From: Microbacterium sp. 4R-513
Lineage (GTDB): Bacteria > Actinomycetota > Actinomycetes > Actinomycetales > Microbacteriaceae
Assembly (NCBI RefSeq): GCF_011046485.1
Contig: NZ_CP049256.1
Location: forward strand, 372,001 to 436,000
Reading direction: 5' to 3'
Length of the DNA stretch: 64,000 nucleotides
Shown here: positions 7,438 to 46,000 of the stretch, in pieces
How positions within the stretch are numbered: the first letter of the stretch is position 1
How the letters are laid out: each line of letters begins with the position of its first letter
Notes under the pieces: generated by a model
The model's database searches: none
Told to the model about the DNA's origin: nothing
The model's input: the letters and a program-made list of their open reading frames with translations, nothing else
Made by a program: the position numbers and the translations under genes

Positions 7438-7467
7438 CGCGCGGAACCGGATGCCGCATTCCGCGCG
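7438..7467 (-). terminator. Probable terminator of the manC gene
   Basis: Nine-base arms CGCGCGGAA and TTCCGCGCG with a 12-nt loop that contains the GGATGCC word. It lies 11 nt after the manC stop codon. Read on the minus strand it is followed by TGTTGCGTCTTTG, only weakly U-rich. Confidence 0.55.
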
Positions 7468-7478
7468 ACTGCGGCTCA

Positions 7479-8594
7479 TCAGAGCACTTCGCTGCGCCCG
7501 TTCACCTTGAGCGCGTCGACCACGCCCTTGACCCGCTGCGCGTGCTCGCTGGTCGTCACGAGGAGCGCGTCGGGGGTGTCGACGACGACGATGTCCTTGA
7601 CGCCGATGAGGCTGATGACGCGATTGGTCTGGCTCACCACGATCCCGCTCGACGCATCGGCGAGGATGCGCGCGTTCTGCCCGAGGATCGCCAGGTCGTT
7701 GCCGCGGCCGTGGCTGTTGAGCTTGGCGAGGCTCGCGAAGTCGCCGATGTCGTCCCAGTCGAAGTGCCCGGGGATGACGGCCAGCTTGCCGCGTGCGGCG
7801 GCGGGCTCGGCGACGGCGTAGTCGATCGCGATCTTCTTGAGGCTCGGCCACACGCGGTCGACGACCGGTCCGCGGGCGTCGCGGTCGTCCCACGCCTCGG
7901 CGAGCTCCATGAGGCCCGAGTGGAGCTCGGGCTCGCTCTGCGCGAGCTCGGCGAGCAGGACGTCGGCGCGCGTGATGAACATGCCCGCGTTCCAGAGGTA
8001 GGAGCGGTCGGCGAAGTAGGCCTTCGCGGTCTCGAGGTCGGGCTTCTCGACGAAGCGCTCGACGAGCGCCGCCTCAGGCGCCCCGTCGATGACGAGCTCG
8101 CCCGCCTTCTTGATGTAGCCGAAGCCGACGGAGGGCTCGACCGGAGGGATGCCGATCGTGCAGATGTAGCCTTCGCGCGCCGTCGCCACCGCTTGGCGCA
8201 CGGCCCAGTCGAAGACCTGCGTGCCGCGGATGACGTGGTCGGCCGCGAACGATCCGATGATGACGTCGGGCTCGCGCCGCGACAGGATCGCCGCAGCGAG
8301 GCCGATGGCGGCGGAGGAGTCGCGGGGCTCGGACTCGAGGAAGACGTTCTTGTCGGGCACTCCTGGGAGCTCCCGCTCGACGGCGGCCCGGTGGGCTCGG
8401 CCCGTCACGACGGCGATCCGATCGGCGCCGGCGAGGGGCTCCAGCCGGTCCCACGTGTCCCGCAGCAGCGTCTGTCCCGACCCCGTCAGGTCGTGCAGGA
8501 ACTTCGGCGCGTCGGCGCGCGAGAGCGGCCACAGCCTGCTGCCGATGCCTCCGGCGGGGATGACGGCGTAGAAGTCCTCGATGGGGTCGACCAT
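7479..8594 (-). CDS. manC: Mannose-1-phosphate guanylyltransferase
   Basis: A 371-residue nucleotidyltransferase that makes GDP-mannose from mannose-1-phosphate and GTP, used for cell-wall glycans, lipoglycans and protein mannosylation. The signature GGIGSRLWPLSR is at 15-26, followed by PKF at 30-32, and later ESEPRDSSAAI. It is shorter than the bifunctional ManC/RfbM proteins and lacks their C-terminal isomerase domain, which is normal for actinobacteria. The ATG is preceded by TAGCCT 7 nt upstream (8607-8602), a leaderless-type start. It is divergent from the sdh operon. Confidence 0.9.
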   Translation of the reverse strand: MVDPIEDFYAVIPAGGIGSRLWPLSRADAPKFLHDLTGSGQTLLRDTWDRLEPLAGADRIAVVTGRAHRAAVERELPGVPDKNVFLESEPRDSSAAIGLAAAILSRREPDVIIGSFAADHVIRGTQVFDWAVRQAVATAREGYICTIGIPPVEPSVGFGYIKKAGELVIDGAPEAALVERFVEKPDLETAKAYFADRSYLWNAGMFITRADVLLAELAQSEPELHSGLMELAEAWDDRDARGPVVDRVWPSLKKIAIDYAVAEPAAARGKLAVIPGHFDWDDIGDFASLAKLNSHGRGNDLAILGQNARILADASSGIVVSQTNRVISLIGVKDIVVVDTPDALLVTTSEHAQRVKGVVDALKVNGRSEVL

Positions 8595-8710
8595 GCGGTC
8601 AAGGCTACCCAGGGGCGTTGCGCGGGGATGTCGGGCAGTTGTCCGGGGCGTGAAGACGGATGCTGCGGCATCCGCACCCCGCGGTCGGGAACGTCGCGCA
8701 CGCCCCGCAT

Positions 8711-8773
8711 TATCTCGACGTCGAGATAGTAAGGCAGGCCTAATCCCCCCTGTTCACAGGACGGGAATAGGAT
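8711..8773 (+). promoter_or_regulatory. Control region of the sdh operon: 18-bp palindrome, possible iron box and -10
   Basis: Bases 8711-8728 are a perfect 18-bp palindrome, TATCTCGACGTCGAGATA, a likely repressor site. Immediately after it, TAAGGCAGGCCTAA (about 8730-8743) is a partial match to DtxR/IdeR iron boxes. A TAGGAT -10 candidate is at 8768-8773, giving a leader of about 85 nt before sdhC. The regulator identities are inference; the palindrome is plainly visible. Confidence 0.55.
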
Positions 8774-8862
8774 GTGGGGGCGCCCGCGTGACGCAGGGGA
8801 GCCATCCCCGAGGGGCAGAGATCCGCCCCCGCACACAGTGTTCGAGTCAGGGAGGACGGCCC

Positions 8863-9297
8863 GTGTCAGCACCAGCACGCGTCACACCGTCGGTCGCCGA
8901 GACCACATCGAGAGTGCCGCGCGGCACCCTCTACCGCGGACGCGAGGGGATGTGGTCGTGGGTCCTCCACCGCATCACCGGCGTCGCCATCTTCTTCTTC
9001 CTCCTCGTGCACGTGCTCGACACGGCGCTGATCCGGGTCTCGCCCGAGGCGTACGACGCCGTCATCGGCACGTACAAGAACCCGATCATGGGCCTCGGAG
9101 AAGTCGTTCTCGTCGCGGCGATCGCGTACCACGCCTTCAACGGCCTGCGCATCATCGCGGTCGACCTGTGGCCGTGGGCCACGCGCATGCAGCGTCAGCT
9201 GTGGTGGGGCGTGCTCGGCATCTGGGCCGTCACGATGCTCGGCTTCGCGCCGCGCCACCTCATGAACGTCTTCGCCTCGACGGGAGGGGGCCACTGA
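8863..9297 (+). CDS. sdhC: Succinate dehydrogenase cytochrome b subunit
   Basis: A 144-residue membrane anchor of succinate:quinone oxidoreductase (complex II). It has three transmembrane helices (about 36-56, 76-98 and 110-132). H36 in LHRITG and H90 in AYHAFNGLRI are in the usual positions for quinone or heme contacts. The GTG start is set by GGGAGG at 8850-8855, 7 nt upstream. It is first in sdhCDAB, and its stop overlaps the sdhD start. Confidence 0.93.
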   Translation: MSAPARVTPSVAETTSRVPRGTLYRGREGMWSWVLHRITGVAIFFFLLVHVLDTALIRVSPEAYDAVIGTYKNPIMGLGEVVLVAAIAYHAFNGLRIIAVDLWPWATRMQRQLWWGVLGIWAVTMLGFAPRHLMNVFASTGGGH

Positions 9298-32424: not shown

Positions 32425-33564
32425 GTGACTCACTCCGCCTCGACTTCCGTCCGCCAGCGCGCCCCCTTCCGGGCCGACATCGTCGGGAGCTTCCTGCGAC
32501 CCGTCGGCGTCGCCGAGGCGCGGCACGAGCACGCCGAGGGCGACCTCTCGACCGCCGCACTGCGCTCCGTCGAGGACGACGCGATCGCCGACCTCGTCGC
32601 GAAGGAGAAGGCCGCCGGACTCGAGCTCGCGACCGACGGCGAGTTCCGGCGCTCCTGGTGGCACTTCGACTTCTTCGGCTTCCTCGAGGGTGTCGAGATC
32701 GTCGAGCTCGATCACGGTATCCAGTTCCAGGGGGTCCAGACCAAGCCCCGCGGAGTGCACGTCTCAGGCCCCATCCGCTTCCCGGCGGACCACCCCTTCC
32801 TCGCGCACTTCCGCTTCCTCAAGGAGCGGGCCGAGGCCGCAGGCGTGACGCCGAAGTTCACCATCCCCGCTCCGACGGTCCTGGACTTCCGGGTCGAGCC
32901 GGGCCACATCGACCCCGTCGCCTACCCCGGCGGCCACCCCGCGATCACCGACGACCTGGTCCAGGCGTACCGCGACGCGTGGCAGGCGTTCTACGACGCC
33001 GGCGCCCGCTACCTGCAGTTCGACGACACGGCATGGGCCTACCTGTGCAGCGAGGTCGAGCTCGAGAAGGCCCGCGAGCGCGGCATCGACACCGACGGCA
33101 TCGCCGAGCGCTACGCGACGCTGCTCAACCGCATCCTCGAAGGCAAGCCCGACGACCTGGTCATCACGACGCACGTCTGTCGCGGCAACTTCCGCTCCAC
33201 CTGGATCTCTTCGGGCGGCTATGAGCCCGTTGCCGAGCAGCTCCTCGGCAACACCGCGTACGACGGCTACTTCCTCGAGTACGACAGCGAGCGCGCCGGC
33301 GGCTTCGAGCCCCTCCGCTTCCTCCCCGAGGGCGACAAGATCGTCGTGCTCGGCCTCATCACGACCAAGAGCGGCGAGCTGGAGGACCCGGAGGTCGTCA
33401 AGCAGCGCATAGAGGAGGCGTCCCACTTCGCGCCCCTCGAGCAGTTGGCGCTGAGCCCGCAGTGCGGCTTCGCCTCGACCGAGGAGGGCAACCTCCTCAC
33501 CGAGGACGAGCAGTGGGCGAAGATCAGGTCGGTCGTCGAGATCGCGGCGGACGTCTGGAAGTAG
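32425..33564 (+). CDS. MetE-like methyltransferase (YxjG/YxjH type, catalytic domain only)
   Basis: A 379-residue protein matching only the C-terminal catalytic barrel of cobalamin-independent methionine synthase. RADIVGSFLRP at the start, LATDGEFRRSWW, LQFDDTAWAY, THVCRGN and LSPQCGFAST carry the zinc His/Cys ligands and the substrate loop. Such short proteins transfer a methyl group to homocysteine from folates or other donors. TACGAT at 32413-32418 followed by 6 nt and GTG fixes the start. It adjoins a cluster with three tetrahydrofolate-dependent O-demethylases, whose 5-methyl-tetrahydrofolate product could be its donor (inference). It ends 4 nt from the convergent dioxygenase. Confidence 0.85.
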   Translation: MTHSASTSVRQRAPFRADIVGSFLRPVGVAEARHEHAEGDLSTAALRSVEDDAIADLVAKEKAAGLELATDGEFRRSWWHFDFFGFLEGVEIVELDHGIQFQGVQTKPRGVHVSGPIRFPADHPFLAHFRFLKERAEAAGVTPKFTIPAPTVLDFRVEPGHIDPVAYPGGHPAITDDLVQAYRDAWQAFYDAGARYLQFDDTAWAYLCSEVELEKARERGIDTDGIAERYATLLNRILEGKPDDLVITTHVCRGNFRSTWISSGGYEPVAEQLLGNTAYDGYFLEYDSERAGGFEPLRFLPEGDKIVVLGLITTKSGELEDPEVVKQRIEEASHFAPLEQLALSPQCGFASTEEGNLLTEDEQWAKIRSVVEIAADVWK

Positions 33565-33568: not shown

Positions 33569-34519
33569 TCAGACCAGCGGGGTGCCGTGGGTGTGGAAGG
33601 TCTCGATGGTCTTCATGCCCCACGCCTGACCCTTCTTGCGCTCCTGCTCGGACCACTCCACGACCGGCTGGTCGGGGTCGAGCAGCAGGCGGGCGCCGGC
33701 GTTGGCGAACTCGATCCGGTTGCCGCCTGGCTCCCATACGTAGAGGAAGAACGTCTGGTTGATGGCGTGCTTGTGCGGGCCCGACTCGATGTGGATGCCG
33801 TTCTCCAGGAAGATGTCGGCGGCCTTGAGGATGTCCTCACGCGTGTCGGGAGCGAACGCGATGTGATGCAGGCGGTTGCCGTGCTTGGTCCAGTCGTCCG
33901 AGTAGACGACGTCGTAGGACTTCAGCGAGAAGTGGAACCACCACGCCGCGAATCTCCCCGAGTCGAGGCGGATGCGCTCGGACTCGCGCATGCCCAGCGC
34001 GCGAGCGAGGAATTCGCCGTTGGCCTCGACATCCTTCGCCAGGTAGTTGATGTGGTCGAGACGCCGAGCGTTGACTCCGCGGCCGGGAAACGCGGATGCC
34101 TGGTTCTTCAGGGCAGGGCGGTCCTCGTCGGATGCCTCGTACCGCTCGGTCTCGTAGTAGATCGCCATCGCGTGCCCGTCCGGGTCGCGGAAGGCGTACG
34201 TCGGACCCGTGCCGACCTCGCCGTCGACCCAGCCGTCCCCGAGGCCCATCGCATCGATCGCGGCGACGCGGCGCTGGAGGGCTTCCTGCGATGAAGCGCG
34301 GAACGAGGTGCGGCCGACGCCCGCGGCATCCGATGCCGTGAGCTTGATCGTGTAGAGCTCGTACTCGTCCCACGTGCGCAGGAACACCGAGTCGCCCGCC
34401 TCGGCGACGACCCGCATCGCGAGGAGGTCGCGGAAGAACCACAGGCTCTTGTCGAACTCGGGGGTGAGCAGTTCGACGTTCGCGAGATGCGCGACGTCGA
34501 AGGCGGTGGAGTCGGTCAT
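33569..34519 (-). CDS. Type I (VOC-family) extradiol ring-cleavage dioxygenase
   Basis: A 316-residue two-domain vicinal oxygen chelate protein. The C-terminal domain has metal ligands H156 (LDHIN), H218 or H219 (RLHHIAF) and E270 (NRIEF), with catalytic-type H251 and Y260. The stretch from H251 to E270 satisfies the extradiol dioxygenase signature (His, seven residues, hydrophobic-Tyr, then EPGGNRIE), so it should be an active Fe(II) enzyme. It is last in an operon for 4-oxalomesaconate catabolism, where a gallate or 3-O-methylgallate dioxygenase is expected. The known ones that I am aware of are LigB-type, so the substrate is inferred from context. AGAGGA precedes the ATG. Confidence 0.85.
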   Translation of the reverse strand: MTDSTAFDVAHLANVELLTPEFDKSLWFFRDLLAMRVVAEAGDSVFLRTWDEYELYTIKLTASDAAGVGRTSFRASSQEALQRRVAAIDAMGLGDGWVDGEVGTGPTYAFRDPDGHAMAIYYETERYEASDEDRPALKNQASAFPGRGVNARRLDHINYLAKDVEANGEFLARALGMRESERIRLDSGRFAAWWFHFSLKSYDVVYSDDWTKHGNRLHHIAFAPDTREDILKAADIFLENGIHIESGPHKHAINQTFFLYVWEPGGNRIEFANAGARLLLDPDQPVVEWSEQERKKGQAWGMKTIETFHTHGTPLV

Positions 34520-34551: not shown

Positions 34552-35637
34552 TCAGGCGCGCGGGAACACGAGCCCGTCGAAGAGCTTGCGAGCGGTGCGG
34601 ATCGAGGTCGACGTTCCGGTCCACGCGCCGTCGTCGGCTTTGCCGACGCGCACGAGCGCGGGGAACGACCCGGACGGGTGCTCAACCTCGATCGGTCCCT
34701 CGGCGGGCAGGCGCGCGAACTCGGAGCCCACGGCATCCGGGATGCTGATCCCCGCCGCGACCGAGGCCGCCATGAGCACGCCGACCGACGGGTGGACCCG
34801 AGACGGGATGAAGGCGCGCGTCGAGATCGCACCGCCGTTGCGGGCCGGCGAGAGGAGGAACATCTTCGGCACGGTCTGCGTCGTGACGTCGCCGAGGCCC
34901 ATGAGCTTGCCGGCGGTGAGGCGCACGGCCTCGATCTGCGATCGCAGGTCGGCCCTCGACTCGAGCTCGGCGGGACTCTCGTCACCGGTGACGCCGAAGT
35001 CCTCCGCGCGGAGGAGCACGACGGGCATGCCGTTGTCGACGAGCGTTGCGGCGTGGCCGGCGATCTCGTCGACGACGTGACCCGTGGGCAGCAGGGGGCG
35101 ACCACCCGACGACATCTCGAGCTCGATGCGGGCGGCGGTGCCGGGCACGCCGTCGATGGCCTGCTCTCCCGCGTAGTCCGGGCGGCCGCCGGGCGTCGGG
35201 AAGGCGGAGGTCGCGACATCCCCGGTGTTCACGAGCCGGATGCGCACCGACGTGTGGTCGCCGCCGGCGGGCACGAGGCCGCGTTCGACGGCGAAAGGGC
35301 CGATGCCCGCGAGCAGGTTGCCGCACGTCTGCGCGTCGCTCACGACCGGCTCGTCGACGACGACCTGCAGGAAGAGGTAGTCGACGTCGATGCCGGGCTC
35401 GGACGACGGCGAGACGATGGCGACCTTGCTCGTGAGCGGATGAGCGCCGCCGACCCCGTCGATCTGCTTCGGGTCCGGGCTGCCCATGATCCGGAGCAGA
35501 AGATCGTCGCGCACGGCCCGATCGGCCGGCACGTCGTCGGCTACGAAGTAGGCGCCCTTCGACGTTCCGCCGCGCATGAGCATGCAGCGGATGCCGTCTC
35601 GCACGGCGCCGGCCAGATCGAAGTCAGCGGCCGCCAT
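34552..35637 (-). CDS. galD: 4-oxalomesaconate tautomerase (PrpF family)
   Basis: A 361-residue PrpF-family isomerase. IRCMLMRGGTSKGAYF at 16-31 holds the catalytic Lys region, and DAQTCGNLLAGIGPFA the catalytic Cys region. PrpF relatives include aconitate isomerase, GalD and LigU. In this operon, beside the hydratase and aldolase of the same pathway, tautomerisation of 4-oxalomesaconate (the ring-fission product of gallate) is the best reading. It overlaps the aldolase gene by 14 nt and is followed after 32 nt by the dioxygenase. Confidence 0.82.
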   Translation of the reverse strand: MAAADFDLAGAVRDGIRCMLMRGGTSKGAYFVADDVPADRAVRDDLLLRIMGSPDPKQIDGVGGAHPLTSKVAIVSPSSEPGIDVDYLFLQVVVDEPVVSDAQTCGNLLAGIGPFAVERGLVPAGGDHTSVRIRLVNTGDVATSAFPTPGGRPDYAGEQAIDGVPGTAARIELEMSSGGRPLLPTGHVVDEIAGHAATLVDNGMPVVLLRAEDFGVTGDESPAELESRADLRSQIEAVRLTAGKLMGLGDVTTQTVPKMFLLSPARNGGAISTRAFIPSRVHPSVGVLMAASVAAGISIPDAVGSEFARLPAEGPIEVEHPSGSFPALVRVGKADDGAWTGTSTSIRTARKLFDGLVFPRA

Positions 35638-36337
35638 CGTCGTACTCCGCCTGCGTCACATAGGTCACGCCGAGGTCGGCGAGCGTCTGGCGCAGGCCCT
35701 TCCGGTCGAGGCTGAGCTGCGCGCCCGATCCGTAGGCGTCGCGGTCGGCGGCCTCCTTCTCGACCCGGGCATCGGCAGCCGCCAGCGCGTCGGCAGCCTC
35801 GAAGCGCGGCACGACGACGACCCCGTCGTCGTCGGCGATCACGACATCGCCGGGACGCACGGTCGCGCCGGCCACGACGATCGGCACGTTGACCGAGCCG
35901 GCTGTCGCCTTGACGGTGCCCTGAGCGTGGACGGCGCTCGACCACACCGGGAATCCCATTGCACGGAGGTCCGCGACATCCCGGACTCCGGTCGTCGTCA
36001 CGAGACCTCGCACGCCCCGTGCCTTCAGGGCGGTGGCGAAGAGGTCGCCGAACGCGCCGTCGCTCGACGTCGACGTCGTCGCGATGACGAGCACGTCGCC
36101 TTCCCGGCACTGCTCGATCGCCGCGTGGATCATGAGGTTGTCGCCGGGCCACGAGAGGATCGTGACGGCCGACCCCGCGATGCGCGCGCCGTCCTGGATG
36201 GGACGGATGCCGGGGCCGACCAGCCCCGTCCGGCCCATCGCCTCGTGCACGGTCGCGACGCCGTGGACGGCGAGTGCGTCGACGACCGCGGCATCCGCTC
36301 GGGCGATGTCGGTGACGATGACGGGGCGTGCCGTCAT
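35624..36337 (-). CDS. galC: 4-carboxy-4-hydroxy-2-oxoadipate aldolase / oxaloacetate decarboxylase
   Basis: A 237-residue class II pyruvate aldolase of the HMG/CHA aldolase (RraA-like) family. It cleaves 4-carboxy-4-hydroxy-2-oxoadipate to pyruvate and oxaloacetate, the last step of gallate and of protocatechuate 4,5-cleavage catabolism, and usually decarboxylates oxaloacetate too. GDVLVIATTSTSSDGAFGDL and ARGVRGLVTTTGVRDVADL contain the conserved Gly-Asp and Arg-Asp residues that bind metal and substrate. The ATG at 36337 overlaps the hydratase stop (ATGA). Confidence 0.88.
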   Translation of the reverse strand: MTARPVIVTDIARADAAVVDALAVHGVATVHEAMGRTGLVGPGIRPIQDGARIAGSAVTILSWPGDNLMIHAAIEQCREGDVLVIATTSTSSDGAFGDLFATALKARGVRGLVTTTGVRDVADLRAMGFPVWSSAVHAQGTVKATAGSVNVPIVVAGATVRPGDVVIADDDGVVVVPRFEAADALAAADARVEKEAADRDAYGSGAQLSLDRKGLRQTLADLGVTYVTQAEYDDGGR

Positions 36338-37089
36338 TCGAGCACGCCCGTCACCTGCGGGAAGTAGCGCATGTACGCCTCGCCCATCGTCTCGTGCGGC
36401 AGGCCGAGGTTGGGGCCCGCATTGCGCTTGACCTGCACGCCGCGGCGGATCGCCAGGTCGGTGTAGTACGACCACATGTGCTTCTGCGCGGGCAGGCACT
36501 CCATCGCGGCGCGCTTGCGCGGGAAGGCGTCGGTGATGTCGAGGAGGACGTTGGGCTTGAAGTCGCTCTGCTCGGGCTGGTGCGGCTCGAAGAAGAAGAC
36601 CGGCGGAGCGCCGATGATGTCGTCCTTGCCGGGGAACGAGCCGTCCGAGTTGGCCACCCCGATCGCTTGGGCGAGAACTCGCGCCTGCAGCGCCATGCGC
36701 GCCGCCGCCGGATGGTCGCCGTTGTACGGGTCGGCGAGCGGGTGGGTCAGCACGACCGTGGGCTGCACGCGCCGATAGACGTCGACGAGCTTCGCCACGG
36801 CATCCTCCGACTCCACGAGCGGGTAGTCGCCGAGGTCGAGGAACTCGATCTCCGCTCCCAGAGCGGATGCCGCGGCAGACGCCTCCTCGCGGCGGATCGC
36901 CTTGATCTCATCGAGGGTCTTGCCCTGCAGCCACTGGCTCGCCGACTCGCCGCGCTCCCCGTACGACAGGCATACGACGACCGCCCGCTCCCCGCGCATC
37001 GTGGCCGCGGCGATCGCTCCGCCGGCACGCCACACGAAGTCGCCCGCATGAGCGCTCACGACCAGCATCGTGGACCCGTTGTCGGCCAT
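36334..37089 (-). CDS. galB: 4-oxalomesaconate hydratase (PIG-L deacetylase fold)
   Basis: A 251-residue LmbE/PIG-L superfamily protein. The usual metal motif HPDD is here H14-A-G-D17 (SAHAGDFVWRAGG), and the second cluster is THPLADPYNGDHPAA. This altered motif and the location beside the aldolase and tautomerase fit the zinc hydratase GalB rather than a sugar deacetylase. It hydrates 4-oxalomesaconate to 4-carboxy-4-hydroxy-2-oxoadipate. The start is at 37089, with AAGGAG 5 nt upstream. It is first in a four-gene operon running to the dioxygenase. Confidence 0.85.
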   Translation of the reverse strand: MADNGSTMLVVSAHAGDFVWRAGGAIAAATMRGERAVVVCLSYGERGESASQWLQGKTLDEIKAIRREEASAAASALGAEIEFLDLGDYPLVESEDAVAKLVDVYRRVQPTVVLTHPLADPYNGDHPAAARMALQARVLAQAIGVANSDGSFPGKDDIIGAPPVFFFEPHQPEQSDFKPNVLLDITDAFPRKRAAMECLPAQKHMWSYYTDLAIRRGVQVKRNAGPNLGLPHETMGEAYMRYFPQVTGVLE

Positions 37090-37234: not shown

Positions 37235-38701
<1,467 letters not shown>

Positions 38702-38739
38702 CCCTGGCCCGGCACCCACCCGAACGAAGGAGTTCCCCG

Positions 38740-40098
38740 ATGTCCGAATCGGCCGCCGACGCCATCGCGCGTGCAGGCAGTCCCGTCGAGCTGCTGCGCA
38801 ACGCGCAGGCCCGACCGACCATCTTCCCCGTGACGCCGGAGTTCACGAACTGGCGTTCCGAGCAGCTGTCGTGGCGCACGAGCGTCGCGCTGCTGGACCA
38901 GTCGCACCACATGACGGACCTCTTCATCTCGGGTCCCGACGCGCTCCGGCTGCTGCGCGACACCGGCGTGAACAGCTTCGAGAACTTCGCGGTCGACCGC
39001 GCGAAGCAGTTCGTCGCGGTCAATCGCGAGGGCTACCTCATCGGCGACGCGATCCTCTTCCACCTCGAGGAGGACGTGTTCGACCTCGTGGGCTGGTTCA
39101 TGGTGCTCGATTGGGTGCAGTACATCGGCGAGTCGGGTGACTACGACGTCACCTTCGAGCGCGATGCGAACTCGCTCATGCGCGAAGCCGGCGTGCCACC
39201 GAAGCTCTACCGCTACGAACTGCAGGGACCGCACGCCCTCGCGCTCATGGAGAAGCTCACCGGAGCGCCGGTGCCTCCGACGAAGTTCTTCCACATGGCC
39301 ACGTTCACGATCGACGGGACCGAGGTGCGCTCGCTCCGCCACGGCATGGCCGGCCAGCCGGGCTTCGAGCTCTTCGGACCGTGGGAGGAGGGCGAACGGG
39401 TCCGGAACGCGATCCTGGCGGCGGGAGAGGAGTTCGGCCTCGTGCTCGTGGGCGCCAAGGCGTACTCGTCGGCCAACCTCGAGTCGGCGTGGGTGCCGTC
39501 CCCGCTGCCCGCCATCTTCACGGGCGAGGGCTCGGCCGACTACCTCGCGTGGCTGCCGGCGAACCGGGTCGGCTCGCTGGCCGGGAGCTTCACGTCCGAC
39601 GACATCGAGGACTACTACCTCACGCCCTACGACCTCGGCTATGGCCGCAGCGTCGCCTTCGATCACGACTTCATCGGCCGCGCGGCCCTCGAACGGCATT
39701 CCGCCGCCGAGCAGCGTCAGAAGGTCACCCTGGTGTGGAAACCGGAGGATGTCGCGGCCGCGCAGCGCTCGCTCTACGAGCCCGGCATCCCGGCGAAGTA
39801 CATCGACTTTCCGAAGGCCCGCTACGGCGTCTATCAGGTGGACCGCGTCCTGGTCGACGGCGCCGACGTGGGCATCTCGCACGACGCCGGCTACATCACC
39901 GGCGAGCAGGTGTTCGCCTCCCTCGCCAGCCTCGATGCGGCCCATGCCGAACCTGGGACGGAGGTCGTCGTCCTCTGGGGCGAGGAGCCGAATTCCACCA
40001 AGCCCGCCGTCGAGCCGCACCGGCAGATCGAGATCCGCGCAACGGTCTATCCGGCTCCCTACTCGGCGTTCGCCCGCGAGAACTACCGCAAGAACTGA
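38740..40098 (+). CDS. Tetrahydrofolate-dependent aromatic O-demethylase (LigM/DesA-like), paralogue B
   Basis: A 452-residue paralogue of the preceding gene with the same layout: FTNWRSEQLSWRTSVALLDQ, D53-Q-S-H-H-M58, [37 protein letters not shown] and a C-terminal barrel. Its opening AIARAGSPVELLRN is almost the same as that of paralogue C at 44618-46000, so B and C are the closer pair. AAGGAG lies 7 nt before the ATG. It is followed by an IclR gene. Two sequential demethylations, as from syringate through 3-O-methylgallate to gallate, could explain having several copies. Confidence 0.82.
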   Translation: MSESAADAIARAGSPVELLRNAQARPTIFPVTPEFTNWRSEQLSWRTSVALLDQSHHMTDLFISGPDALRLLRDTGVNSFENFAVDRAKQFVAVNREGYLIGDAILFHLEEDVFDLVGWFMVLDWVQYIGESGDYDVTFERDANSLMREAGVPPKLYRYELQGPHALALMEKLTGAPVPPTKFFHMATFTIDGTEVRSLRHGMAGQPGFELFGPWEEGERVRNAILAAGEEFGLVLVGAKAYSSANLESAWVPSPLPAIFTGEGSADYLAWLPANRVGSLAGSFTSDDIEDYYLTPYDLGYGRSVAFDHDFIGRAALERHSAAEQRQKVTLVWKPEDVAAAQRSLYEPGIPAKYIDFPKARYGVYQVDRVLVDGADVGISHDAGYITGEQVFASLASLDAAHAEPGTEVVVLWGEEPNSTKPAVEPHRQIEIRATVYPAPYSAFARENYRKN

Positions 40099-40111
40099 CT
40101 CACGTGAGGGG

Positions 40112-40131
40112 ACGGATGCCGCGGCATCCGT
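40112..40131. repeat. Perfect 20-bp palindrome of the GGATGCC word
   Basis: ACGGATGCCGCGGCATCCGT lies between demethylase B and the IclR gene. It can form a hairpin acting as a weak terminator or mRNA-processing site between the two cistrons. The ribosome site of the IclR gene (AGGGAGG) follows. Confidence 0.6.
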
Positions 40132-40153
40132 CGCCTCCACAGGGAGGTCTGCG

Positions 40154-41035
40154 ATGGCCCACGGCTCGGACGGCGAGTCGGTCCTGCATCGTCATCTGCG
40201 CGTGCTCGAGGCCTTCGACATCCTGCGGCCGTTCCTCACGCTGGGCGAGATCGCCGACGCGACGAGACTGCCGGTGTCGACGACCCACCGTCTCGTCGCC
40301 GAACTCGAGCGCGAGGGACTGCTCGAGCGCACGCCCGAGCGCACGTATCGGCTCGGCATCCGTCTCTGGGAGTTCGCGTCGCGCACGCCCGGCGCCGTGG
40401 GACTGCGCGAACTCGCCCGCCCATCGCTCGAGGTGGTCCACTCGCGGATACGGCAGCACACGCAGCTGGGCGTGCTGAGCGACTGCGACGTACTCTTCAT
40501 CGAGCGGCTCTCGACGCGCGAGGCCGTCGTGAACGCCACGGTGATCGGCGGCCGCGTTCCGCTTCCGGTCAGCTCGAGCGGACTCGTGCTGCTCGCGCAC
40601 GCCGGGCGCGGGGTGATCGACGAGGTGATCGCCGCCGGCTGGCCCCGGTACACGGCAGCGACGATCCGCGACGCCGACGAGCTGCGGGCGCGGCTGCGGC
40701 GTGTGCGCGCCGACGGATTCGCCGTCACGGATGGACACGTGCACCGGGAGGCGCGGGGCATCGCGGTGCCGATCGTGGGATCTCGTGGCGCGGTCCACGC
40801 GGCGCTGGGCGTGGTCGTGCCCAATGACCGTTCCTCGCCGCTGCCGACCGTGGAGCTCCTGACCGTCGCGTCCGCGCAGATCTCGCGTGCTCTGCGTGAC
40901 GCGTACCCCTTCAGTCGACCCGAGGGGATGCCGCGGCCGAGGCATGCCGTGCGCCCTCTGGCAGATGGCGCTCGCCGATCTCGGGATGTGCTCACGCCGC
41001 CCGAAGCCCCGGCATCCCGCATGACCCGAGGGTGA
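40154..41035 (+). CDS. IclR-family transcriptional regulator (first copy)
   Basis: A 293-residue regulator with an N-terminal winged helix (LTLGEIADATRLPVSTTHRL, about 28-47) and a C-terminal IclR effector domain. It starts MAHGSDGESVLHRHLRVL, nearly the same as the second IclR copy at 43666-44541 (MARGSDGESVLHKHLRVL), and they remain alike through the whole protein. Regulators of this family often control aromatic acid catabolism by sensing an aromatic acid (PcaU, PobR). The C-terminal 50 residues are Pro/Arg-rich and not conserved with the other copy. Confidence 0.9.
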   Translation: MAHGSDGESVLHRHLRVLEAFDILRPFLTLGEIADATRLPVSTTHRLVAELEREGLLERTPERTYRLGIRLWEFASRTPGAVGLRELARPSLEVVHSRIRQHTQLGVLSDCDVLFIERLSTREAVVNATVIGGRVPLPVSSSGLVLLAHAGRGVIDEVIAAGWPRYTAATIRDADELRARLRRVRADGFAVTDGHVHREARGIAVPIVGSRGAVHAALGVVVPNDRSSPLPTVELLTVASAQISRALRDAYPFSRPEGMPRPRHAVRPLADGARRSRDVLTPPEAPASRMTRG

Positions 41036-41044
41036 ACCGCGAAA

Positions 41045-41071
41045 GCCCGGGCACCGCGTGGGTGCCCGGGC
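41045..41071. terminator. Bidirectional terminator
   Basis: Arms GCCCGGGCACC (41045-41055) and GGTGCCCGGGC (41061-41071) with a 5-nt loop, between the convergent IclR and tannase genes. GAAA precedes it, giving a short U-run on the minus strand. Confidence 0.85.
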
Positions 41072-41092
41072 CTCACGTTCCTGGCGAGCGGG

Positions 41093-42712
41093 TCAGTTCG
41101 TGACGCAGGTGTACGAGCTCGCCTGGTCGACGGAGCCGGAGCCGACATACTTCGGCCACGACGGGAACTCGCACATCGGCCGGGTGCGGTTCGCCCCCGG
41201 GTTGCCGTCACTGGCGACGAGGCCCGACGGGGCGACGCCGTTCTCGACCCAGTCGACGATCGCACTGAGACCGTCGTACTGCGCGAGGAAGCGACCCTGC
41301 CCGTGACCCCATCCCGGCACCTCGTAGAACCTCAGGAACCGGCTCAGGCGCTTGCCGAACTCATCCTGCAGCGACGCGTAGTAGAGCTCGGTGTTGTGCG
41401 GCGTGATGAAGTCGTCGATCGTCCCGTGCGTCATGATGATCTTGCCGCCGTGGGCGCGGAACTGGTTGAGCGAGACGTCGGTGACGTCCATGATCTCGCC
41501 CACCTCCTGCACGCGGTCGGCATAGTCGAGCGGGTCGACGGTGTACGGGTCGAATCCCGGGGGGTTGCCCGCGACGCCGTAGCGCATCGTCGCATCGAAC
41601 ACCTGGAACTGCAGCCCCTGCGACAGCGGCCCGGTCCCGAAGCCCGCGAAGCCCTGGTAGAGGGCGCCTTCGAACAATGCGCTCTTCGCGAAGATCGAGT
41701 TGCCCTCGATGTCGATGCCGAGGTCGTAGTCGGTCGTGATCTTGATCGCGGCCTCGATCTCGACCTCCGAGAGGCATGTGTCGACCGCTGCCGGGTCCAC
41801 GCCCGCGGGGCAGGCGAGAGTGCGCACGTCGAAGGCCTCGTCGCAGCCCTTCACGTTGCTGATGAGACCGTCGGTGACCCCGTCAAGCGGGTCGCACGTC
41901 GCATAGACGGCATTCGTGATCGTGGCCGTCTCGGCGGAGTTGAGGTGACCGGCACCCCCCTCCAGCAGCAGTGCGTCGCGGAAGTTGACGGCGCCGACAT
42001 GCATCATCGTGACGTTGTACGCCGGGTAGTTGGCGATGACGCCGTCGTAGTCCTTCGGGTAGCGAGCCGCAGCATCGAGTGCCTCGTGCCCGCCCTGCGA
42101 GCCGCCGATGAAGTACGACCACTTCGGGTCGACGCCGTAGGCCGCATCGATCACGGCGTAGGCGGCGTCGTGCGCCTTCTTGACCGACCACTGTCCGTAG
42201 TTCAGGAACAGCTCCTCATCCAGTTGGAACCGGCCGTCGAAACCGGGACCGCCCTGATGTCCCCCGTCCGAACCGAGGGTCACCCAGCCCTGCGAGAGGG
42301 CGGTGGGCGAGCCGTTGGGCTGCGCGGTGTAGAGACCCGTGGCGGTGACGAGCGAGCCGTCGAAGCCGCCGCCGCCGAACTGCAGCGTTCGACCGTTCCA
42401 CGCCCCGGGCAGGTTCACGCGGAACTGCATGTCCTGCGGCGCGGTGACCGCGTGGATCCAGCCGGTGACCGCGCAGAAGTTCCCTGCCGCATCCCACACG
42501 GCGGTGTCGATGTCTGCGCCGTTCGTGGGAAGCCCGATCGCCTTGGCGGGGATCGTGAGGTCGGCGAGGGGTGCACACTGTGCCGCCGTGAGCGCAGGCG
42601 CGCCACCGCGGGACGGCGGGGCCGCCGAGGCCGACGCGGCCCCCGCGGTGACGAAGAGGGCCGCTGCGATGCCGATCGACACCACTGTCAGCCGTCTGAA
42701 CCCTGATTTCAT
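41093..42712 (-). CDS. Secreted tannase / feruloyl esterase family hydrolase
   Basis: A 539-residue alpha/beta hydrolase of the tannase and feruloyl esterase family. Residues 1-30 form a Sec signal peptide (basic start, hydrophobic core, ASASA cleavage region). The nucleophile elbow is GGSQGG with S205; the catalytic His is probably in VPGWGHGQG, and CDPLDGVTDGLI matches the family's calcium-binding region. Members release gallic or hydroxycinnamic acids from esters. Inside a gallate-type catabolic cluster it probably supplies the acid substrate outside the cell. The start follows GAAGGAG by 6 nt. Cysteines are plentiful, as in secreted homologues. Confidence 0.87.
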   Translation of the reverse strand: MKSGFRRLTVVSIGIAAALFVTAGAASASAAPPSRGGAPALTAAQCAPLADLTIPAKAIGLPTNGADIDTAVWDAAGNFCAVTGWIHAVTAPQDMQFRVNLPGAWNGRTLQFGGGGFDGSLVTATGLYTAQPNGSPTALSQGWVTLGSDGGHQGGPGFDGRFQLDEELFLNYGQWSVKKAHDAAYAVIDAAYGVDPKWSYFIGGSQGGHEALDAAARYPKDYDGVIANYPAYNVTMMHVGAVNFRDALLLEGGAGHLNSAETATITNAVYATCDPLDGVTDGLISNVKGCDEAFDVRTLACPAGVDPAAVDTCLSEVEIEAAIKITTDYDLGIDIEGNSIFAKSALFEGALYQGFAGFGTGPLSQGLQFQVFDATMRYGVAGNPPGFDPYTVDPLDYADRVQEVGEIMDVTDVSLNQFRAHGGKIIMTHGTIDDFITPHNTELYYASLQDEFGKRLSRFLRFYEVPGWGHGQGRFLAQYDGLSAIVDWVENGVAPSGLVASDGNPGANRTRPMCEFPSWPKYVGSGSVDQASSYTCVTN

Positions 42713-42876
42713 CGACGCTCCTTCGCGTTGTGACTCACCGCCCTCGTTGCGGCGGACGCGACGATGCCAGGTCGCGGGCCCCGCTTCAACGCCGTTTCCG
42801 CCCAATGCGGCTTGTCATTGCAAGGCGTCCTGTCGGCGGGTATTGTGCGCGGCCGGGGGGATCGAGCTCCTCGGCC

Positions 42877-43653
42877 CTACCCCTCGTCCTGTGCCACGAG
42901 ACGCTCGAACCACGCGAGCGTCGCCCGCGTCATGTCGGTCGGCTGACCCGTCGACTCGAGCGCCGCGAGCGCATCGCGCATCTCGTGCTCCCGCCGGACG
43001 GCGTGGCGGTGCGAGCCGGCGATGAGTCGGTCGACGAGGTCGGCTCCGTCGGGCCCGAGCTCTGCCGCGATCTGTGCGCGGAGCCACGCGTCGGCGCCGA
43101 CCGCCCGTGCCGCCGCATCGGCCTCGAGCACGAGCGCGGCAAGACCCTTCATGAAGACGCTGCGCAGCAGTCGCAGCCGGGCGGCTTCACCGGCCTCGCC
43201 GTCGACGACCGTGATCGGCACCCCGAACGACCGCAGGCGCTCCGCCAGGACAGTCGCCCCCGCGCCGCTCGCGAGAAGCGGCGTGCGATGTGCGGCGCGG
43301 ACGACGGGCGCCAGCACCGCGACATCGGCCATGGCGATGCCTTGGTCCGCGGCGAGCGCGGCGACCTCGAGCTTGATCTCGGGCGAGGCGGTGTTCAGGT
43401 CGGCGTAGACGGCGGCCGGATCCGCCAGCGGCAGGGCGTCGCGGGCGACGGATGCCGCGGCCGCGCCGCCGACCAGACTCACGACGACGCCCGCGCCGGC
43501 GAGTGTCTCGCCGAGGTCGTCGAGCTGACGCACGTCCGGGTCGCCCAGCCGGTGGTGCGGGTCGTAGCCCCGCACCTCGGCGCCCTCCGACAGCAGTCCG
43601 CGGGCATAGAGCCGCCCCGCCTCGCCGAGGCCGAGGATCGCGATCGTCGTCAT
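42877..43653 (-). CDS. NAD(P)-binding dehydrogenase with DUF1932 domain
   Basis: A 258-residue protein with an N-terminal Rossmann fold (IAILGLGEAGRLYARGLL, 4-21) of the 6-phosphogluconate or 3-hydroxyisobutyrate dehydrogenase type and a C-terminal helical DUF1932 domain containing RLLRSVFMKGLAALVLEAD. The lysine in SVFMKG is in the position of the catalytic Lys of beta-hydroxyacid dehydrogenases. The substrate is unknown. It is 12 nt after the second IclR gene and lies between the two demethylase-IclR modules, so a hydroxyacid of the aromatic pathway is a fair guess. Confidence 0.8.
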   Translation of the reverse strand: MTTIAILGLGEAGRLYARGLLSEGAEVRGYDPHHRLGDPDVRQLDDLGETLAGAGVVVSLVGGAAAASVARDALPLADPAAVYADLNTASPEIKLEVAALAADQGIAMADVAVLAPVVRAAHRTPLLASGAGATVLAERLRSFGVPITVVDGEAGEAARLRLLRSVFMKGLAALVLEADAAARAVGADAWLRAQIAAELGPDGADLVDRLIAGSHRHAVRREHEMRDALAALESTGQPTDMTRATLAWFERLVAQDEG

Positions 43654-43665
43654 CGAGTGCTCACC

Positions 43666-44541
43666 CTAGCCGCCGCTCGTCGGCCACGGCGTGGCGTCGA
43701 GCGACGCGAAGTAGTCGAGCGAGCGCTGCGAGCCGGTGATGAGGGCGCGGATGCCGCGGCCGTCGTGCGTCGCCGCGGCGCCGTCGGGGAGGTAGGCCTC
43801 CTCCAGCGCCCGGGTGATCCCGGCCGCGGCCACGGTGAGCAGCTCGATCGCGGGCTGCGGCGACGACCCGTCGTTGGCGACGACCACGCCGATCGCGGCA
43901 TAGACGGCGCCGTGCGGCCCGAGCACGGGCACGGCGATACCGCTGGACTCGGCGTGGATCTGCCCGTTCGTGATGGCGAATCCGTCGGCTCGCACATGCC
44001 GCAGCCTGTCGCGCAGTGCGTCGCGCCGGATCGTCTCGGCCGTGTACGCCGGCCACCCGGCGGCGATCACCTCGTCGACGAGTCCGGGAGCGGCGTGCGC
44101 GAGCAGGACGAGCCCGCTCGAGCTCACGGGCAGCGGAGTTCGACCCCCGATCAGCGTGAGGTTCAGCACGGCGTCGCGCGTCGACATCCTTTCGATGAAG
44201 AGCACGTCGCGACCGCTCAGCACTCCCAGCTGCGTGTGCTGCCGTACTCGCGCGTGCACGGCGCCGAGCCACGGTCGCGCGAGCTCCCGCAGACCGAGGG
44301 CGCCCGGCGTCCGCGACGCGAACTCCCACAGGCGCACGCCGAGCCGATACGTGCGGTCGGGCATGCGCTCGAGCAGCCCCTCGCGCTCGAGCTCGGCGAC
44401 GAGACGGTGCGCGGTCGAGAGGGCCAGGCCCGAGGCATCCGCGATCTCGGTCAGGGTGAGGAAGGGGCGCAGGGTGTCGAAGGCCTGCAGTACCCGCAGA
44501 TGCTTGTGCAGGACGGATTCGCCGTCCGATCCCCGCGCCAT
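43666..44541 (-). CDS. IclR-family transcriptional regulator (second copy)
   Basis: A 291-residue paralogue of the IclR gene at 40154-41035. The winged helix is LTLTEIADASGLALSTAHRL, and the effector domain has QHTQLGVLSGRDVLFIERMS, which matches the other copy (QHTQLGVLSDCDVLFIERLS) at most positions. GGGGAGG precedes the ATG. A 15-bp inverted repeat with TTCCG/CGGAA arms lies 37 nt upstream, a typical size for an IclR operator. It may regulate itself and the neighbouring demethylase C. Confidence 0.9.
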   Translation of the reverse strand: MARGSDGESVLHKHLRVLQAFDTLRPFLTLTEIADASGLALSTAHRLVAELEREGLLERMPDRTYRLGVRLWEFASRTPGALGLRELARPWLGAVHARVRQHTQLGVLSGRDVLFIERMSTRDAVLNLTLIGGRTPLPVSSSGLVLLAHAAPGLVDEVIAAGWPAYTAETIRRDALRDRLRHVRADGFAITNGQIHAESSGIAVPVLGPHGAVYAAIGVVVANDGSSPQPAIELLTVAAAGITRALEEAYLPDGAAATHDGRGIRALITGSQRSLDYFASLDATPWPTSGG

Positions 44542-44577
44542 GGGCGACCTCCCCTCGTCGGCGCCATGCTAACCGGA

Positions 44578-44592
44578 TTCCGTTCAGCGGAA
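44578..44592. promoter_or_regulatory. Candidate IclR operator upstream of the second iclR copy
   Basis: TTCCGTTCAGCGGAA has perfect TTCCG/CGGAA arms and a 5-nt centre. It is just upstream of a TAGCAT -10 candidate for the iclR gene. A near-copy, TTCCGTTCAACAGAA, occurs before demethylase C. Confidence 0.55.
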
Positions 44593-44617
44593 CCGGGGTC
44601 GCACGGATGCCTCGGGT

Positions 44618-46000
44618 CTAGGCCGGGACCGAGGCGTCTGCCCGATACACCGTCCGTGCCCACTCGTGGTACGGAGCGGGAGCCACGGTGGCGCGGATCC
44701 GCACCTGGCGGTGGTCGGCGTCGACGGAGTCCTTGCGCGAGATGGGGTCCTCACCCCAGACGACCTCGACCTCGTCGCCATCGGCGATGTCGGTGTCGAG
44801 CGTCGCGAGCGACATGTAGAGCTGGTCGTAGGCGATGTACCCGGCATCGGTGGAGATGCCGACGCGGCGGTCGCCCTGGACGACCTCGTCCATCTGGTAG
44901 AGGCCGTACCGCGCCTTCGGGAAGTCCAGGAACTTCGCCGGCGTACCGGGCTCGAGCTGCGAGCGGACGACGGCCGCGACATCCTCCGCGTTCCACAGCA
45001 GCGTGACCTTGCGGCGCCTCTGGTTCTCGGCGTGCTTCTCGAGAGCCGCCCGACCGTGGAAGTCGTGGTCGAAGCGCACGGACTTGCCGAGCCCGATGTC
45101 GTAGGGGGTCATGTAGAACTCGTGGATGTCCTCGGAGTACAGCGACCCGCCGATCGATCCCGCGCGCGCGGCCGGCAGCCACTCGCGGTACTCGGCGAAG
45201 TCCTCGTCGAAGATCGCCGGGAAGGGCGTGGGCACCCAGCCGGATTCGAGCGGCGTGGCCGAGTAGGCCTTGGCGCCTACGCGACGGATGCCGAACTCGC
45301 CCCCCGCGTCGAGGATGGCCTCGAGCACCACGTCGCTGTCCTCCCACGGTCCGAAGAACTCGAAGCCGGGCTGCCCCGCCATGCCGTGGCGGAGCGCCTT
45401 GACGTTCCTGCCGGCGATCGTGAAGTCGGCGATGTGGAAGAACTTGACCTCGGGCACGGGTCCGCTGAAAAGCTTCTCCATGACCTGATTGGCGTGCGGG
45501 CCCTGCAGCTCGTACCGGTAGAACGTCGGCGGGCCCTGGCGCATGTGAGAGTTCGCCTCGAGGCGGTGGTGCACGTCCTTGCCTGCCGCCTCGGCCTTCT
45601 CGGCGTTGTACCGCACCCAGTCGATGAGGATGTGGTGGCCGATCAGCACGAGTCCCTCGGGACCCTCCGCGTTGTAGAAGAGGATGCCGTCGCCGATCAG
45701 GTAGCCGTCCTGGTTGACCGAGATCAGCTGCTTGGCGACTCCCGGCCGGAACGTGCCGAAGGTGTTCGGCGAGATGCTCTCCAGCATGGGAAGAAGGTCG
45801 GCGCCGTGGAGGAACAGCTGGGTCATATGGTGCGACTGGTCCATGAGCGCCACGCTCGTGTTCCAGGCGCGCTGCTCGTCGCGCCAGTTCGTGAACTCGG
45901 GCGCGACCGGAAAGGTGAACGCCGGCCAGTTCTGGTTGCGCAGCAGCTCCACGGGGCTGCCCGCGCGGGCGATCGCTTCTGCGAGAGATTCAGACGTCAT
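44618..46000 (-). CDS. Tetrahydrofolate-dependent aromatic O-demethylase (LigM/DesA-like), paralogue C
   Basis: A 460-residue third member of the GcvT-like demethylase set. AIARAGSPVELLRN near the N-terminus is the same as in paralogue B, then DQSHHM, YRYELQGPHANQVMEKL, RHGMAGQPGFEFFGPWE and SEDIHEFYMTPYDIGLG. It carries small changes from B in the folate-domain loops (for example an insertion near EKAEAAGKDVHHR), so the substrate may differ. It is followed by an IclR gene, the same order as B, but on the opposite strand. A candidate IclR operator lies about 65 nt upstream. Confidence 0.82.
   Translation of the reverse strand: MTSESLAEAIARAGSPVELLRNQNWPAFTFPVAPEFTNWRDEQRAWNTSVALMDQSHHMTQLFLHGADLLPMLESISPNTFGTFRPGVAKQLISVNQDGYLIGDGILFYNAEGPEGLVLIGHHILIDWVRYNAEKAEAAGKDVHHRLEANSHMRQGPPTFYRYELQGPHANQVMEKLFSGPVPEVKFFHIADFTIAGRNVKALRHGMAGQPGFEFFGPWEDSDVVLEAILDAGGEFGIRRVGAKAYSATPLESGWVPTPFPAIFDEDFAEYREWLPAARAGSIGGSLYSEDIHEFYMTPYDIGLGKSVRFDHDFHGRAALEKHAENQRRRKVTLLWNAEDVAAVVRSQLEPGTPAKFLDFPKARYGLYQMDEVVQGDRRVGISTDAGYIAYDQLYMSLATLDTDIADGDEVEVVWGEDPISRKDSVDADHRQVRIRATVAPAPYHEWARTVYRADASVPA

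What the first reader, a model, noticed from the sequence alone, without database searches (positions are those of the whole stretch)
33569..34519. A type I (VOC) extradiol dioxygenase occupies the slot of gallate dioxygenase
Seen: a complete extradiol signature (H251 to E270, with Y260) in a protein ending an operon of hydratase, aldolase and tautomerase, all enzymes acting after ring opening of gallate. Known: gallate and 3-O-methylgallate dioxygenases that I know of (GalA, DesB, DesZ, LigAB) are type II LigB-family proteins. No LigB-like gene is in the window. Inference: this VOC enzyme opens the trihydroxylated (or methoxylated dihydroxylated) ring, a non-orthologous replacement.
Basis: partly seen in the sequence, partly recalled or inferred. 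Interest (0 to 1): 0.82.

Follow-up and report, generated by a model that had tools for sequence, protein, structure and literature searches.

The report
Unrelated enzyme likely opens gallate ring
A protein that databases call a catechol dioxygenase probably opens the ring of gallate, a building block of tannins and lignin breakdown, a job so far credited to an unrelated enzyme family, and the same gene arrangement recurs in distantly related bacteria.

Summary
Window 33569-34519(-) encodes a 316-aa type I (VOC) extradiol dioxygenase. It ends an operon of oxalomesaconate hydratase (GalB-like), CHA aldolase and oxalomesaconate tautomerase, near three LigM/DesA-type O-demethylase genes and a tannase-family gene. 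The single-contig genome has no LigB match and has protocatechuate 3,4-dioxygenase.

Comparative evidence favours gallate as substrate. Of 24 actinobacterial genomes with an oxalomesaconate tautomerase over cut-off, 16 have this VOC gene next door, 7 LigB, 1 neither, none both. The protocatechuate-route dehydrogenase LigC is in all 6 LigB-type genomes of the family draw and in none of the 9 VOC-type ones. A walnut Agrobacterium plasmid has hydratase-VOC-aldolase-tautomerase-tannase in a row. The VOC proteins form one clade with Tyr where homoprotocatechuate dioxygenase has His200, with rare exceptions. Similar clusters occur in Alpha- and Gammaproteobacteria, Deinococcota and a Bacteroidota MAG.

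Against: no assay; the clade includes Bacillota proteins of unseen context; some loci lack the tautomerase; Roseomonas and one Microvirga carry LigB near VOC; protocatechuate 3,4-dioxygenase can attack gallate slightly. I judge gallate 4,5-cleavage most likely (0.72): a new variant of a known kind. Ten open-access searches listed no description.

The parts
33569..34519 (-). VOC (type I) extradiol dioxygenase, proposed gallate 4,5-dioxygenase; metal ligands H156, H219, E270; Tyr202 where homoprotocatechuate dioxygenase has His200
34552..35637 (-). 4-oxalomesaconate tautomerase (GalD-like, PrpF family)
   Evidence: NF033377 447.4 bits, cut-off 440; best PDB 6p3j, named (4E)-oxalomesaconate Delta-isomerase
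35624..36337 (-). 4-carboxy-4-hydroxy-2-oxoadipate aldolase (GalC/LigK-like)
   Evidence: NF006731 318.8 bits, cut-off 179; TIGR02798 292.2, below its cut-off 304.5
36334..37086 (-). 4-oxalomesaconate hydratase (GalB-like, PIG-L fold)
   Evidence: PF02585; best PDB 5cgz, named 4-oxalmesaconate hydratase, E 1.2e-76
37298..38701 (+). LigM-type tetrahydrofolate-dependent vanillate/3-O-methylgallate O-demethylase
   Evidence: NF047885 910 bits, cut-off 580; LigM structures 5x1i/5tl4, E 3e-213
38740..40098 (+). second LigM/DesA-type O-demethylase, candidate syringate O-demethylase
   Evidence: NF047633 578 bits, below cut-off 800; NF047885 527, below 580
40154..41035 (+). IclR-type regulator
   Evidence: PF01614 and PF09339; PcaR/PcaU/PobR model 131 bits, below cut-off 284.75
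41093..42712 (-). tannase/feruloyl esterase family protein, possible source of gallate
   Evidence: PF07519 349.5 bits
42877..43653 (-). DUF1932 NAD(P)-dependent oxidoreductase, companion gene of unknown role
   Evidence: PF09130 and PF03446
43666..44541 (-). second IclR-type regulator
   Evidence: PcaR/PcaU/PobR model 116 bits, below cut-off
44618..46000 (-). third LigM/DesA-type O-demethylase
   Evidence: PF01571; NF047633 486 bits, below cut-off 800
32431..33564 (+). short MetE-like methyltransferase, convergent with the VOC gene; role unexplained
   Evidence: NF005085 553 bits, cut-off 313

Best explanation
The protein is a metal-dependent type I (VOC) extradiol dioxygenase that cleaves gallate between C4 and C5 to 4-oxalomesaconate. 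Proposed mechanism: Fe(II) or Mn(II) held by H156, H219 and E270 is chelated by two adjacent hydroxyls of gallate; O2 binds the metal, attacks the ring and opens it, giving the keto acid directly because both cleaved carbons carry hydroxyls. The tautomerase makes the enol, the PIG-L hydratase adds water and the aldolase gives pyruvate and oxaloacetate. Gallate comes from syringate and 3-O-methylgallate by the LigM/DesA-type demethylases, or from tannins by the tannase-family enzyme. Shown: fold, ligand residues, gene order, alternation with LigB, absence of LigC from the VOC-type genomes tested and of LigB from this genome. Inferred: substrate, cleavage position, metal, and any role of Tyr202.
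For: (a) Operon with oxalomesaconate tautomerase, hydratase and CHA aldolase. (b) No LigB match in the whole genome; PcaHG present for protocatechuate, both subunits over cut-off. (c) Alternation: 149 Microbacteriaceae, 16 tautomerases over cut-off: 9 beside VOC, 6 beside LigB, 1 neither, 0 both; 296 Actinomycetota, 9 over cut-off: 8 VOC, 1 LigB (LigB there sought at E 1e-35 only). (d) LigC in 6 of 6 LigB-type genomes of the family draw (81-100% id, the query being one of the six), in 0 of 10 others. (e) 80 relative loci: 64 have at least one and 56 all three of GalB/GalC/GalD within 6 kb; LigB, LigC and LigI (at 45% identity or more) 0 of 80 within 10 kb. (f) Tannase after GalB-VOC-GalC-GalD on an Agrobacterium pAt plasmid. 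(g) LigM-MetF-PurU-VOC in Nitratireductor (MetF and PurU named by sight). (h) Two loci without a GalB match, L041 (contig cut) and L044, have a LigJ-type hydratase. (i) One clade with Tyr at position 202, support 100/99.
Against: No biochemistry. PcaHG, present here, converts gallate to PDC in other bacteria, weakly in ADP1 (PMC12481942, passages), so another gallate opener exists in principle. The nearest solved relative, 9wgj (Geobacillus), is called catechol 1,2-dioxygenase and also has Tyr202; the context of the Bacillota branch was not seen. 16 of 80 loci have no Gal gene within 6 kb; 13 of them are Microvirga, all 13 with a MetE match and 10 with a VanA-like match, and 4 of those 13 genomes have no tautomerase match. 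Five Actinomycetota loci have GalB, GalC, DUF6282 and DUF1932 beside VOC but no tautomerase. Roseomonas has LigB beside VOC; 5 of 6 Microvirga genomes searched hold LigB, in one (L050/G151) about 12 kb from VOC by coordinates. Thermus oshimai has a 4-hydroxybenzoate hydroxylase and an aldehyde dehydrogenase nearby, which suggests protocatechuate there. One GalB-GalC-linked VOC (L146) has His at 202. VOC enzymes usually cleave para-substituted catechols proximally (recalled), so distal gallate cleavage would be unusual.
Confidence: 0.72

Rival explanations
1. It cleaves 3-O-methylgallate rather than gallate, giving the methyl ester CHMOD or the lactone PDC, which is then hydrolysed to oxalomesaconate.
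For: DesA-like demethylases accompany it. In five read Actinomycetota loci a DUF6282 protein lies with VOC, GalB and GalC but no tautomerase, and in three of them (L142, L143, L145) a LigM2-like gene is near. In Roseomonas an alpha/beta hydrolase sits between LigB and VOC.
Against: The nearby LigM passes the 3-O-methylgallate O-demethylase model; LigI in 0 of 80 VOC loci within 10 kb; the confident tautomerase next door acts on oxalomesaconate; no DUF6282 match in the window.
Confidence: 0.1
2. It is a protocatechuate 4,5- (or 2,3-) dioxygenase.
For: The same downstream enzymes serve the protocatechuate 4,5 route; a Thermus oshimai relative lies near a 4-hydroxybenzoate 3-monooxygenase and an aldehyde dehydrogenase.
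Against: Protocatechuate cleavage gives a semialdehyde that needs LigC and LigI (pathway knowledge); LigC is absent from this genome and the other 8 VOC-type genomes tested, while all 6 LigB-type genomes have it. PcaHG is present here.
Confidence: 0.08
3. It is a catechol or alkylcatechol 2,3-dioxygenase, as annotated.
For: It scores 306 bits on the catechol 2,3-dioxygenase model, just under the cut-off of 320; many relatives are named so; closest folds are AphC and C23O.
Against: The neighbours are not those of a catechol meta pathway, whereas a His-type relative (Thermus thermophilus, 42%) lies near dmpG and acetaldehyde dehydrogenase. Residue 202 and the clade differ from C23O, AphC and MndD.
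Confidence: 0.06
4. It opens another trihydroxylated ring such as pyrogallol or hydroxyquinol, and gallate is handled otherwise.
For: Gallate can be decarboxylated to pyrogallol (recalled); the substrate is not assayed.
Against: A decarboxylated ring would not give the tricarboxylic intermediates that the tautomerase, hydratase and aldolase use (pathway knowledge).
Confidence: 0.04

Closest known systems
GalA / DesB gallate dioxygenases (type II, LigB superfamily)
   Same: Proposed reaction, and the same kind of downstream tautomerase, hydratase and aldolase
   Different: Unrelated family: no PF02900 match in this protein or genome
AphC (RHA1/EP4 alkylcatechol 2,3-dioxygenase, PDB 3lm4, 7q2a)
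   Different: Has His at the position of Tyr202; outside the clade
Homoprotocatechuate 2,3-dioxygenase (HPCD, MndD)
   Same: Metal ligands and the matches of N157, W192, H248 and Y257 are kept
   Different: His200 is Tyr202, Arg243 is Ser246, Arg293 is Gly297; about 27% identity; this genome has its own MndD-like protein, 81% identical over 296 residues
9wgj, Geobacillus 'Catechol 1,2-dioxygenase' (VOC sequence)
   Same: Nearest solved sequence (E 3e-106), also Tyr202, same supported clade
   Different: Genomic context and substrate not seen; the first branch of the clade as drawn
PcaA of Pseudarthrobacter phenanthrenivorans Sphe3 (type II)
   Same: Actinobacterial enzyme shown to convert gallate to oxalomesaconate, at 44% of its activity (PMC8431788, passages)
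   Different: Type II (LigB-type) protocatechuate 4,5-dioxygenase

Membership tests
Type I (VOC) extradiol dioxygenase | Two-domain VOC fold | tested here: met
Type I (VOC) extradiol dioxygenase | 2-His-1-Glu metal ligands | tested here: met
   H156, H219, E270 by alignment to MndD
Type I (VOC) extradiol dioxygenase | Second-sphere acid-base His (HPCD His200); role recalled, not taken here as obligatory for the superfamily | tested here: not met
   Tyr202; Tyr in 89 of 89 rows L001-L089 (L081 is the window's own gene) and 120 of 120 rows P0001-P0120, His in 21 of 21 rows L090-L110
Type I (VOC) extradiol dioxygenase | Ring cleavage with metal and O2 | not testable with these tools
   no assay
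Catechol 2,3-dioxygenase (TIGR03211) | Curated score cut-off | tested here: not met
   306 vs 320.2 bits
Homoprotocatechuate 2,3-dioxygenase HpaD (TIGR02295) | Curated score cut-off | tested here: not met
   177.7 vs 321.4 bits
LigB superfamily (GalA, DesB, LigAB) | PF02900 domain | tested here: not met
   No PF02900 in the protein or the genome
Gallate catabolic (gal) cluster | Tautomerase, hydratase and CHA aldolase beside the ring opener | tested here: met
Gallate catabolic (gal) cluster | Gallate dioxygenase activity | not testable with these tools
   no assay
Protocatechuate 4,5-cleavage cluster | LigC dehydrogenase | tested here: not met
   best matches in own genome 24-32% over part of the query

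The most novel reading that the evidence does not exclude
A family of type I gallate dioxygenases, marked by Tyr in place of the catalytic His, spans Actinomycetota, Proteobacteria, Deinococcota and a Bacteroidota MAG, and in Actinomycetota accounts for most gallate-type ring opening instead of LigB. Many proteins named 'catechol 2,3-dioxygenase' would then be gallate dioxygenases, and a VOC enzyme would perform distal cleavage of a trihydroxylated ring.
Probability: 0.6. Interest if true: 0.72.

Novelty: new variant of a known kind. Interest (0 to 1): 0.6.

Why it matters
Gallate is central to the breakdown of tannins and syringyl lignin. In the passages I saw, AromaDeg (2014, PMC4250580) puts gallate dioxygenases in the LigB superfamily and names no gallate among the VOC substrates. 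If this VOC clade does the same reaction, pathway predictions that look for LigB miss gallate degraders, a set of 'catechol 2,3-dioxygenase' names is wrong, and the Tyr-for-His change gives a natural test of how extradiol enzymes control proton transfer and cleavage site. The enzyme is also a candidate part for lignin upgrading.

Tried and rejected
Considered and set aside: catechol 2,3-dioxygenase, protocatechuate dioxygenase, 3-O-methylgallate dioxygenase (see rivals). The idea that Tyr202 marks gallate activity was weakened: of 120 listed relatives of 9wgj, among them many Bacillota, 119 have Tyr with context unseen, and L146 has His in a GalB-GalC cluster. The idea that VOC and LigB exclude each other genome-wide failed: 16 of 26 genomes reached from VOC loci hold a LigB-family protein somewhere, as do two of the nine VOC-type Microbacteriaceae (G033, G040). 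The exclusion holds for the gene next to the tautomerase in the two actinobacterial draws.

Literature: ten searches of open-access PMC papers; none listed a VOC gallate dioxygenase. Most subscription papers and bioRxiv preprints are not held. I saw passages of PMC8671467, PMC12481942, PMC8431788, PMC9867520 and PMC4250580, and search listings for the rest. PMC8671467 reports a Bacillus VOC dioxygenase inactive on protocatechuate and pyrogallol; I did not test whether it belongs to this clade. The term 9wgj was in no paper.

The fold searches add only that this is an ordinary VOC extradiol fold; 9wgj was not in the rows shown. My gene caller is rough and sometimes picks the wrong strand, so counts come from tblastn.

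Full report
What is there. The ORF at 33569-34519(-) encodes 316 aa. Sequence and structure place it among type I (VOC) extradiol dioxygenases: PF00903, sub-cut-off scores to catechol 2,3-dioxygenase and HpaD models, an AlphaFold model with pTM 0.87 whose best matches are AphC, catechol 2,3-dioxygenases and homoprotocatechuate dioxygenase. Mapped on MndD/HPCD, the ligands H155, H214 and E267 are H156, H219 and E270, and N157, W192, H248 and Y257 are kept; His200 is Tyr202, Arg243 is Ser246 and Arg293 is Gly297 (the roles of these HPCD residues are recalled).

The operon. On the minus strand, from its last gene upstream: VOC, oxalomesaconate tautomerase (passes NF033377), CHA aldolase (passes NF006731) and a PIG-L protein whose best solved relative is an oxalomesaconate hydratase. 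Divergent from it lie a LigM-type O-demethylase that passes the vanillate/3-O-methylgallate model, a second DesA/LigM-like gene below both cut-offs and an IclR regulator; then a tannase-family gene, a DUF1932 oxidoreductase, another IclR-type gene and a third O-demethylase, a branched-chain ABC transporter (two of its genes checked; the rest by sight) and an aldehyde dehydrogenase family protein below all listed cut-offs. I read the island as syringyl-lignin and tannin catabolism passing through gallate.

Own genome. PF02900 (LigB) has no match in the 3.91-Mb single contig, with the control ringing in 4 of 14 genomes. PF00775 finds two adjacent genes, and both pass the protocatechuate 3,4-dioxygenase subunit models (333.7 vs 296.4 and 172.4 vs 126.25 bits). 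A protein 81% identical to MndD over 296 residues lies in L121, where one search also has a match at C1:450848, so homoprotocatechuate has its own candidate enzyme.

Alternation with LigB. In one draw of 149 Microbacteriaceae genomes, 16 have an oxalomesaconate tautomerase over cut-off. Nine have a VOC gene (57-100% identical) within 200 bp of it (G000, G012, G084, G016, G033, G132, G008, G040, G037), six have LigB within 2.5 kb (G106, G042, G117, G029, G076, G055), one has neither (G078), none has both. All nine VOC matches of 57% or more lie beside a tautomerase; none of the listed matches of 43% or less does. Two of the nine (G033, G040) hold a LigB protein elsewhere. In a draw of 296 Actinomycetota, 9 genomes have the tautomerase over cut-off: 8 beside VOC and 1 (G465) near LigB (LigB there sought at E 1e-35, so weaker LigB relatives are not excluded). 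G000 is in both draws, so there are 24 distinct genomes: 16 VOC, 7 LigB, 1 neither, 0 both.

Why gallate and not protocatechuate. I read 5 of the 7 LigB-type clusters (L115-L118, L150): all 5 carry LigC, and LigI and LigJ were found in 4, the protocatechuate 4,5 set. A LigC query taken from one of them finds 81-100% identical genes in 6 of 6 LigB-type genomes of the family draw, and in the other 10 (nine VOC-type and G078) only partial matches of at most 34% or one longer match of 24%. Protocatechuate cleavage gives an aldehyde that LigC oxidises; gallate cleavage gives the acid directly (pathway knowledge). The NMR study of PcaA (PMC8431788, passages) reports that its gallate product is oxalomesaconic acid in the keto form only, which fits a need for a tautomerase.

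Relatives. Of 106 stretches matched in one-genome-per-species contigs, 89 encode a relative and 80 were kept. Within 6 kb, 64 of 80 have at least one of GalB, GalC, GalD and 56 have all three; LigB, LigC and LigI (45% identity or more) are in 0 of 80 within 10 kb; a LigJ-type hydratase is in 2 (L041, L044). The 16 without any are 13 Microvirga plus L035, L038 and L058. Of those 13 Microvirga genomes, 9 hold the tautomerase over cut-off elsewhere and 4 show no match; the L035 and L058 genomes hold it over cut-off, L038 only below. The Bacteroidota member (L080, a 4-kb MAG contig with GalB, GalC and GalD matches) branches among proteobacterial rows and could be mis-binned.

Plasmids and the wider phylum. 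On plasmid records I opened 15 stretches, 14 Tyr-type and one His-type (Thermus thermophilus). One Tyr-type (Nonomuraea) is unannotated. Of the 13 annotated Tyr-type stretches, 11 show a PIG-L, CHA aldolase or oxalomesaconate tautomerase gene; Roseomonas (LigB, VanA/VanB-type genes) and Chimaeribacter do not. Agrobacterium tumefaciens 186 from walnut has PIG-L, VOC, aldolase, tautomerase and tannase in a row. In the phylum draw 15 genomes have VOC of 53% identity or more: 8 with the tautomerase over cut-off beside it and 7 without any tautomerase match; I read 5 of those 7 (L142-L146), and all 5 have GalB, GalC, DUF1932 and DUF6282 matches near VOC (Pfam confirms DUF6282 in L142, L143 and L146). 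DUF6282 has no match in the window.

Clade and residue 202. Tyr is present in 89 of 89 rows L001-L089 (L081 being the window's gene), 120 of 120 database rows and the window; His in 21 of 21 rows L090-L110 and in 4 of 5 PDB rows, the fifth being 9wgj with Tyr. These rows overlap in organisms. 9wgj matches a Geobacillus zalihae protein at 100%; of the 120 listed relatives of it, 119 have Tyr and P0210 has His. Of 23 VOC rows from later loci, 21 have Tyr; L146 and the Thermus thermophilus row have His. In a 56-row tree the 41 Tyr rows lie on one side of a branch with support 100/99 (L146 was not in it). PDB holds HPCD His200 variants (titles); I recall, without a call, work in which His200 changes alter HPCD's reaction, so Tyr here may matter for mechanism.

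Judgement. The ring-opening slot beside the gallate enzymes is filled by this VOC protein, and LigB is absent. Gallate 4,5-dioxygenase is the best explanation (0.72). Against it stand the lack of any assay, the unseen context of the Bacillota branch, loci without tautomerase, LigB beside VOC in Roseomonas and about 12 kb away in one Microvirga (L050/G151, by coordinates), the Thermus oshimai neighbourhood, and the weak activity of PcaHG on gallate reported for other bacteria (PMC12481942, passages). In the passages seen, AromaDeg (PMC4250580) lists gallate dioxygenases under LigB; ten full-text searches of open-access papers listed no VOC gallate dioxygenase, but most subscription literature was not searched. 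I rate it a new variant of a known kind.

Noticed in passing
window 32431-33564; L048-L052, L055, L056, L130: A short MetE-like methyltransferase (NF005085) recurs near the VOC gene in Microbacterium and Microvirga (29 of 80 loci within 10 kb), and a cobalamin-independent methionine synthase II family gene on a Pantoea plasmid, also where a Rieske VanA-like gene rather than a THF demethylase lies nearby. Its role is unexplained.
   Followed up: partly
window 42877-43653; L078, L127-L129, L131, L136, L142-L146: A DUF1932-type NAD(P)-dependent oxidoreductase is a frequent companion of VOC-GalB-GalC clusters, with no step for it in the gallate route that I know.
   Followed up: partly
L142-L146, L134, L114: A DUF6282 protein (57-90% identical to that of L142) accompanies GalB in all seven of these loci; five of them (L142-L146) lack the tautomerase, so it may replace it or hydrolyse a lactone. 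In G078 (L114) it stands with GalB and the tautomerase but no VOC or LigB match was found beside them.
   Followed up: partly
L127 (Roseomonas mucosa plasmid) 6046-8963: A small ORF, a class III (LigB-type) extradiol dioxygenase, an alpha/beta hydrolase and VOC lie in one run of genes, with VanA/VanB-type genes downstream: two unrelated extradiol enzymes together.
   Followed up: no
window 37298-46000: Three paralogous LigM/DesA-type O-demethylases; two (38740-40098, 44618-46000) fall below both curated cut-offs and may have other methoxylated substrates.
   Followed up: partly
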